Part shown: piece by piece, positions 33,305 through 33,511 of the stretch
How the letters are laid out: the number at the start of each line of letters is the position of its first letter
Numbering within the stretch: the first letter of the stretch is position 1
NCBI GenBank assembly: GCA_947630335.1
Contig: CANRHE010000003.1
Coordinates: forward strand, 1-53,839
Source: an uncultured Sphingobacterium sp.
GTDB lineage: Bacteria; Bacteroidota; Bacteroidia; Sphingobacteriales; Sphingobacteriaceae
DNA: 53,839 nucleotides
Direction of reading: 5' to 3'
The notes under the pieces: model-generated
What the model was told of the DNA's origin: nothing
Databases searched by the model: none
The model's input: the letters and a program-made list of their open reading frames with translations, nothing else
Program-made: the position numbers and the translations under genes

Positions 33305-33511
33305 TCTTCGAGGTTTGTTCGACACGTCTTCGAATGCGCTTCGAGACTTGTTCGAGACCTCTTCGAGAATCCTTCGAGGGCTCTTCGACTGGGCTTCGAC
33401 TGGGCTTCGAGAACGCTTCGAGTCGCACCGAAGCAATGTCGAACAAGTGTCGAAGCTGTCCCGAAGGTGTGTGCAATGCGTCTCGAACAATCGCCGAACA
33501 GTACTCGAAGG
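33305..33511. repeat. 11-bp-periodic TTCGA array with mid-array orientation flip
   Basis: C of the CG core at 33309, 33320, 33331, 33342, 33353, 33364, 33375, 33386, 33397, 33408, 33419, then 33429, 33440, 33451, 33462, (33473 degenerate), 33484, 33495, 33506. Confidence 0.95.

What the first reader, a model, noticed from the sequence alone, without database searches (positions are those of the whole stretch)
33305..33511. 11-bp-periodic TTCGA array with one orientation flip and one phase slip
Seen directly: 11 forward units (TTCGA) at exact 11-bp spacing, then after a 10-bp step eight registers in the opposite orientation (TCGAA/CCGAA), one of them degenerate. The spacing is about one helical turn, so all cores fall on nearly one DNA face. 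The two blocks are inverted and could form a long imperfect hairpin or cruciform. Because 33 bp equals 11 codons, five overlapping ORFs appear on both strands with 11-aa repeats, so the ORFs are likely by-products of the DNA pattern. Function unknown: phased binding for an architectural protein, a chromosome-organising site, or a repeat-type mobile sequence.
Basis: seen in the sequence. Interest (0 to 1): 0.85.

Follow-up and report, generated by a model that had tools for sequence, protein, structure and literature searches.

The report
Dispersed two-armed 11-bp TTCGA repeat
The pattern is one copy of a roughly 200-bp scattered DNA repeat, apparently undescribed and typical of the Bacteroidota phylum, whose short TTCGA motif recurs exactly every 11 bases and flips direction in the middle; it looks like a tolerated, probably selfish element read as DNA rather than a gene or an RNA hairpin.

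Summary
In detail: 11 TTCGA units at exact 11-bp steps (33307-33421), a 10-bp step, then 8 inverted registers to 33511, one of them degenerate. It is not a single site. The same genome has 11 such arrays in this search. Nine or ten align almost without gaps over about 200 bp and lie between unrelated flanks, so this is a dispersed repeat family. The family recurs in other species of the genus and across Bacteroidota; two-armed arrays are essentially absent in other phyla. Spacing is exclusively 11 bp. Opposing spacers do not complement each other beyond controls, so a hairpin is not being selected. The ORFs are by-products: all six frames are open, and intergenic copies differ by single 11-bp units. 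Two contexts recur: upstream of DUF6266 genes (10 species), and in frame inside stop-free leaders of SusC/TlpA-type genes (3-4 species), where no amino-acid constraint is seen. REP/RAYT tags and transposase, target-site duplications, Rfam families and recurrent neighbour proteins were tested and not found. Best reading: a non-autonomous interspersed repeat recognised as phased double-stranded DNA by an unknown protein. The mover and any host function are not shown.

The parts
33307..33421 (+). long arm: 11 TTCGA units at exact 11-bp steps
   Evidence: sequence
33422..33427 (.). centre: orientation flip, CpG-to-CpG step 10 bp
   Evidence: sequence; other copies have 10 or 11, some 20/21
   Evidence: sequence
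33467..33478 (-). degenerate register; matches the GCATGCAGACAG region of other copies of the family, read on the minus strand
   Evidence: family alignment
31649..32635 (-). flanking gene: NAD-dependent glycerol-3-phosphate dehydrogenase; its 5' end faces the array, 672 bp away
33719..34006 (+). flanking small ORF, probable antitoxin (inferred only from its position next to the zeta-like gene); 5' end faces the array
33985..34737 (+). flanking zeta-toxin-like P-loop protein (PF06414)

Best explanation
The array is one copy of a dispersed, non-autonomous intergenic repeat of about 200 bp found in Bacteroidota. Each copy has two facing arms of 11-bp units (TTCGA plus 6 bp) with an orientation flip in the middle. 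Shown: dispersal between unrelated flanks, strict 11-bp phase, a conserved core with variable spacers, retention at orthologous sites in some species, and copies differing by 11- and 22-bp steps. Inferred: copies are recognised as double-stranded DNA by a protein that reads the core in the same helical phase along each arm, and that recognition is what preserves core and phase. Also inferred: copies spread in trans by an unidentified host or element enzyme, and are tolerated because they sit between genes or, being open in nearly all frames, do not break a reading frame. No benefit to the host is shown.
For: Eleven loci in the own genome. Nine to ten copies align over about 200 bp with shared boundaries and unrelated flanks. 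G045 holds about 40 loci of its own flavour with two end types, GGGGTTT and AGGTCA. Unit flavour is genome-specific, as expected for a family amplified within each genome. Period is exclusively 11 bp. In the genus the unit is TTCGA-S-W-S-N-N-S, with position 10 never A and position 11 almost always C or G; the strong/weak degeneracy fits minor-groove or shape readout rather than base pairing between arms. No inter-arm covariation. Two-armed arrays in 25 of 76 Bacteroidota loci, against 1 of 44 other genomes and 1 of 59 viral loci; on inspection neither of those two is a convincing two-armed array. An array stays between an HTH_17 gene and DUF6266 in several species with cores kept and spacers changed. 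Intergenic in G000 and G045.
Against: No mobiliser found: no recurrent neighbour protein, Y1 transposase PF01797 absent from G000, G009, G020, G023, G071 and G074, and no target-site duplication. No empty site was seen, so movement is inferred from copy dispersal only. G071 copies spread together with whole duplicated SusC/TlpA leaders, and the DUF6266 association looks vertical; both mean some copies are inherited or duplicated rather than transposed. Recurrence upstream of DUF6266 could mean a real regulatory role.
Confidence: 0.5

Rival explanations
1. A host-serving operator or architectural array: a DNA-binding protein, perhaps the HTH_17-type protein encoded just before the array in the DUF6266 loci, fills the phased sites and controls or insulates the neighbouring gene.
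For: In 10 species an array lies 250-350 bp upstream of DUF6266 (coordinates), often right after an HTH_17 gene; in some species a terminator-like hairpin separates the HTH_17 gene from the array (sequence). Core and phase are kept while spacers change.
Against: Many DUF6266 copies and most genomes have no perfect array; some DUF6266 upstream regions carry different, weaker sequence. The G000 copies sit between unrelated genes with no shared regulator.
Confidence: 0.25
2. A structured RNA or cruciform: the two arms fold into a long hairpin that acts as RNA or extruded DNA.
For: Arms are inverted. Some copies have long perfect central stems, e.g. L083 and L085 and G045. 11 bp is one turn of A-form RNA (established knowledge).
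Against: Facing spacers do not covary in G000 or in the genus. No Rfam match. G071 copies keep phase without paired spacers.
Confidence: 0.08
3. A protein-coding 11-residue repeat.
For: Open frames through the array. In G071, G074 and G009, and in one locus of G023, the array lies in a long stop-free frame that runs on for hundreds of codons. In the G071 and G074 alignments there are no stops over the leader; simulated stops average 11 and 8.
Against: No codon-position bias in the leaders, against strong third-position bias in the downstream receptor. Intergenic copies differ by single 11-bp units, which changes frame. The window ORF finds one protein in 5.8 billion.
Confidence: 0.05
4. A plain minisatellite grown by slippage, with no selection.
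For: Runs of identical adjacent units and 22-bp alternation, e.g. L066, L070, L074, L075.
Against: Two facing arms, shared boundaries across copies, no 10- or 12-bp phase errors inside arms, and a fixed core with variable spacers.
Confidence: 0.1

Closest known systems
REP/BIME elements (GTAG- and CGTC-tagged palindromic repeats; PMC3733652)
   Same: Intergenic, dispersed, palindromic layout, very uneven copy number between species, genome-specific families; in G045 they lie nearer 3' ends and none of 18 classified copies is between divergent genes
   Different: About 200 bp in G000 rather than 20-40 bp, built of 11-bp phased units, no GTAG/CGTC tag seen at the ends, no Y1/RAYT transposase in most carriers, arms not selected to pair
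Rickettsia palindromic elements (RPE; reviewed in PMC10969869)
   Same: Palindromic repeats that can lie in frame inside coding sequence
   Different: Here most copies are intergenic; unit structure is an 11-bp phased array; only SusC/TlpA-type leaders carry in-frame copies
MITEs, including tandem-repeat MITEs such as BrickBuilt of Porphyromonas gingivalis (the latter from memory)
   Same: Short non-coding dispersed element with inverted halves and internal repeats, in the same phylum
   Different: No target-site duplication, no partner transposase found
Plasmid centromere iterons such as parC of R1 with 11-bp direct repeats (from memory)
   Same: 11-bp direct repeats suited to phased protein binding
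   Different: Many copies scattered on chromosomes, no partition-gene neighbour recurs, absent from most relatives
PARCEL repeats (PMC2996958)
   Same: Palindromic repeat DNA coding amphipathic repeats, dispersed
   Different: PARCELs are 25-residue coding domains; here the period is 11 bp and amino acids are unconstrained

Membership tests
REP (GTAG/CGTC) | GTAG or CGTC tetranucleotide at one foot of the palindrome | tested here: not met
   Ends read in G000 and G045: GGGGTTT and AGGTCA in G045; no shared GTAG/CGTC
REP (GTAG/CGTC) | Associated Y1 (RAYT) transposase in carriers | tested here: not met
   PF01797 in 13 of 61 genomes, absent from G000, G009, G020, G023, G071, G074; present in G045. 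G000 is 81% complete. CGTC-type REPs lack a dedicated transposase anyway
REP (GTAG/CGTC) | Stem maintained by base pairing | tested here: not met
   No covariation in G000 or the genus
MITE | Target-site duplication | tested here: not met
   Flank direct repeats equal control: 4.1 vs 3.9 in G045, 4.8 vs 4.5 in G000
MITE | Terminal inverted repeats shared with an autonomous element | tested here: inconclusive
   Inverted ends exist; no autonomous partner seen among neighbours
MITE | Dispersed homologous copies with unrelated flanks | tested here: met
RPE-like in-frame palindromic element | Copies in frame inside translated sequence | tested here: inconclusive
   Met for SusC/TlpA-type leaders of G071 and G074 and long frames in G009 and G023; all G000 copies are intergenic
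Structured RNA family | Covariation or match to a known family | tested here: not met
Protein-coding repeat | Purifying selection on amino acids | tested here: not met
   Equal rates at the three codon positions in the leaders
Plasmid-type centromere | Adjacent partition genes | tested here: not met
   No recurrent neighbour family

The most novel reading that the evidence does not exclude
The arrays are recognition sites of a dedicated Bacteroidota protein that loads on 11-bp phased, two-armed DNA and drives mobilisation or recombination. Its targets would include the fast-duplicating SusC/TlpA leaders and the HTH_17-DUF6266 loci, making this a new kind of phased repeat-and-protein system rather than a passive repeat.
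Probability: 0.18. Interest if true: 0.85.

Novelty: new variant of a known kind. Interest (0 to 1): 0.6.

Why it matters
It is a phylum-wide family of interspersed repeats with a rigid 11-bp design for which I found no description in the papers searched, and for which no mobiliser is known. If the phase is read by a protein, the arrays give direct probes to find it. Some copies end contigs, so they probably break assemblies; they create spurious ORFs; and they mark the translated leaders of multi-copy SusC/TlpA-type genes, which may be a route to receptor diversification.

Tried and rejected
Hairpin/cruciform under selection: rejected for G000 and the genus by the spacer-swap control. Known RNA family: none. 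Coding: no codon-position bias; one database protein for the window ORF. Stop-codon avoidance as the driver: the array has 0 stops in six frames, but trinucleotide tests show TAG is not clearly depleted while many non-stop triplets are, so openness is mostly a by-product. RAYT/REP mobilisation. Target-site duplications. Recurrent partner gene near arrays: only array-derived ORFs and common gene families. Viral origin: 59 viral pattern matches, none convincingly two-armed. Replichore polarity: in G045 matches on both strands are interspersed along the chromosome, but the origin was not located, so this is weak. Literature searches found no description, but the library lacks most subscription papers.

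Full report
OBSERVATION. The array is present as described. Eleven TTCGA units start at 33307 and repeat every 11 bp to 33417; the next CpG comes after 10 bp, and eight inverted registers follow to 33505, the fifth degenerate. In the own genome three-unit matches number 84 against 0 for the reversed control pattern. When gaps of 2 to 12 bp were allowed, the clustered matches kept a 6-bp gap, and a scan of lags 5 to 40 gave signal in G000 only at 11, 22 and 33.

A FAMILY, NOT A SITE. The own genome (2.6 Mb, 227 contigs, 81% complete) holds arrays on contigs C2, C3 (the window), C19, C20, C27, C34, C37, C50, C83, C101 and C117. Turned the same way, nine or ten of them align almost without gaps over about 200 bp, start and end at about the same aligned places, and have unrelated flanks; C50 is cut by its contig end, C117 is one-armed near a contig end and C101 is longer. 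The short arm has a recognisable order of units (GTTCGAGACAGCATGCAGACAGGTTCGGGACAGCTTCGAGAAGTG), and a similar order appears in Daejeonella lutea (L140). The arrays therefore most likely descend from a common element and are not independent inventions at each site.

DISTRIBUTION. Arrays occur in 10 further genomes of the first 40 relatives, nine of them in the genus, with widely different numbers, and in about 40 loci of G045. A named scan found them in Parapedobacter, Daejeonella, Empedobacter, Chitinophaga, Paraflavisolibacter, Breznakibacter and several Bacteroidales. Two-armed arrays were found at 25 of 76 Bacteroidota loci and at 1 of 44 loci of other phyla (L178) and 1 of 59 viral loci (L308); neither of those two is convincing on inspection. 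In an even draw of 399 genomes of the phylum only 4 had four perfect units, so the perfect form is uncommon.

UNIT AND PHASE. In the genus the unit is TTCGA followed by strong-weak-strong, two loose positions and a strong base; position 10 is never A, and position 11 is almost always C or G. Other lineages have other flavours, for example TTCGATNGTTC in the Bacteroidales MAG RUG737. Neighbouring units are sometimes identical or alternate at 22 bp, so arms probably grow by slippage, yet core and phase stay fixed while spacers change. Neighbouring 11-bp tracts with other cores (GTAC, CATGTG, AAGCA) exist in G074, G071, Paraflavisolibacter and Chitinophaga, so the period may be more basic than the TCGA core. 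An 11-bp step is a full turn for A-form RNA or underwound DNA, not for relaxed B-DNA, where 11 units drift about half a turn (established knowledge).

HAIRPIN TEST. If the arms had to pair, spacer k of the left arm would complement spacer k of the right arm of the same copy better than that of another copy. In G000 the paired counts of 6 are 1.78 vs 2.36, 2.56 vs 2.38, 1.89 vs 2.31, 2.78 vs 2.81, and in the rest of the genus 2.92 vs 3.02, 2.92 vs 2.76, 2.83 vs 2.69. Pooling all lineages raises the observed figure, but that mixes genome flavours. Single copies such as L083 and L085 do have long perfect stems, so a hairpin can form; it is not what is being kept. No Rfam family matches.

CODING TEST. 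All six frames of the window array are open. Because 11 is not a multiple of 3, every frame reads the same 11-residue repeat, and intergenic copies differ by single units, which changes frame. In G071 and G074, however, the array lies inside a leader of 300 to 450 codons in frame with SusC- or TlpA-like genes. All 11 aligned copies are free of stops in that frame while the other two frames on that strand hold 14 to 29 stops in the first kilobase; simulated stops average 11 (G071) and 8 (G074), and none was observed. Aligned cells stay in frame across the G071 leader, and across the G074 leader except in columns 400-800, where L264 carries large gaps. Yet substitutions are about equal at the three codon positions in the leader, against 0.09/0.03/0.38 in the downstream receptor of G074. 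The leader is therefore translated, or must stay translatable, but its amino acids do not seem to matter. Long frames through arrays also exist in G009 and G023. Trinucleotide tests do not single out stop codons, so the six-frame openness is mainly a by-product of composition that makes the element tolerable inside a frame.

CONTEXT. In G000 five copies lie between convergent, three between divergent and one between tandem genes; in G045 fifteen tandem, three convergent and no divergent, nearer to 3' ends (median 111 bp) than to 5' ends (224 bp). In ten species (G008, G009, G010, G022, G023, G047, G055, G059, G063, G071) an array lies 250-350 bp upstream of a DUF6266 match (coordinates). In G023, G009 and G071 the array sits just after an HTH_17 gene and aligns across species with cores kept and spacers changed; related layouts are seen. 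With a handful of DUF6266 genes per 5 Mb this association is far beyond chance by rough reckoning, but it may reflect one inherited arrangement. G000 copies have no shared neighbour.

MECHANISM. I commit to a non-autonomous interspersed repeat whose arms are read as phased DNA by a protein, spread by an unidentified enzyme (0.5). Shown: dispersal, phase, core conservation, absence of covariation. Inferred: the protein, the mover, and lack of host benefit. The main rival is an operator or architectural array (0.25), for which HTH_17 is the natural candidate because its gene adjoins the array in DUF6266 loci.

COMPARISON. It works like REP/BIME elements and MITEs, and like Rickettsia palindromic elements in tolerating in-frame positions, but it is not a REP by tag, transposase or stem, and not a demonstrated MITE because no target-site duplication or partner transposase was found. 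Hence new variant of a known kind.

LIMITS.

Noticed in passing
window 47734-49812: Type II-A retron: NDT_II-A effector (E 3e-72) and RT_II-A (E 4e-110) by PADLOC models; the HTH gene at 47121 lies just upstream.
   Followed up: partly
window 51851-53698: dCTP deaminase-type defence protein (PADLOC dCTPase, E 1e-104), near the retron: a small defence cluster.
   Followed up: partly
window 33719-34737: Small ORF plus zeta-toxin-like P-loop protein, a probable toxin-antitoxin pair beside the array.
   Followed up: partly
L254, L256-L261 (G071) and L263-L266 (G074), upstream of SusC/TlpA-like genes: Leaders of 300-450 codons, free of stops, with no codon-position bias: apparently translated with amino acids unconstrained.
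   Followed up: yes
L265 2315-2401, L256 3291-3372, L096 499-727, L170 1287-1426, L189 5407-5579: Other 11-bp periodic tracts with cores GTAC, CATGTG or AAGCA instead of TCGA, some contiguous with TCGA arrays.
   Followed up: partly
G045 chromosome, e.g. L358, L359, L366: About 40 dispersed short palindromic copies with ends GGGGTTT / AGGTCA and units ATTCGAGRCAT, a compact relative of the family.
   Followed up: partly
window 32878-32915: Strong terminator-like hairpin followed by a run of T in the same intergenic region, without an evident gene before it on that strand; possible small RNA (sequence only).
   Followed up: no
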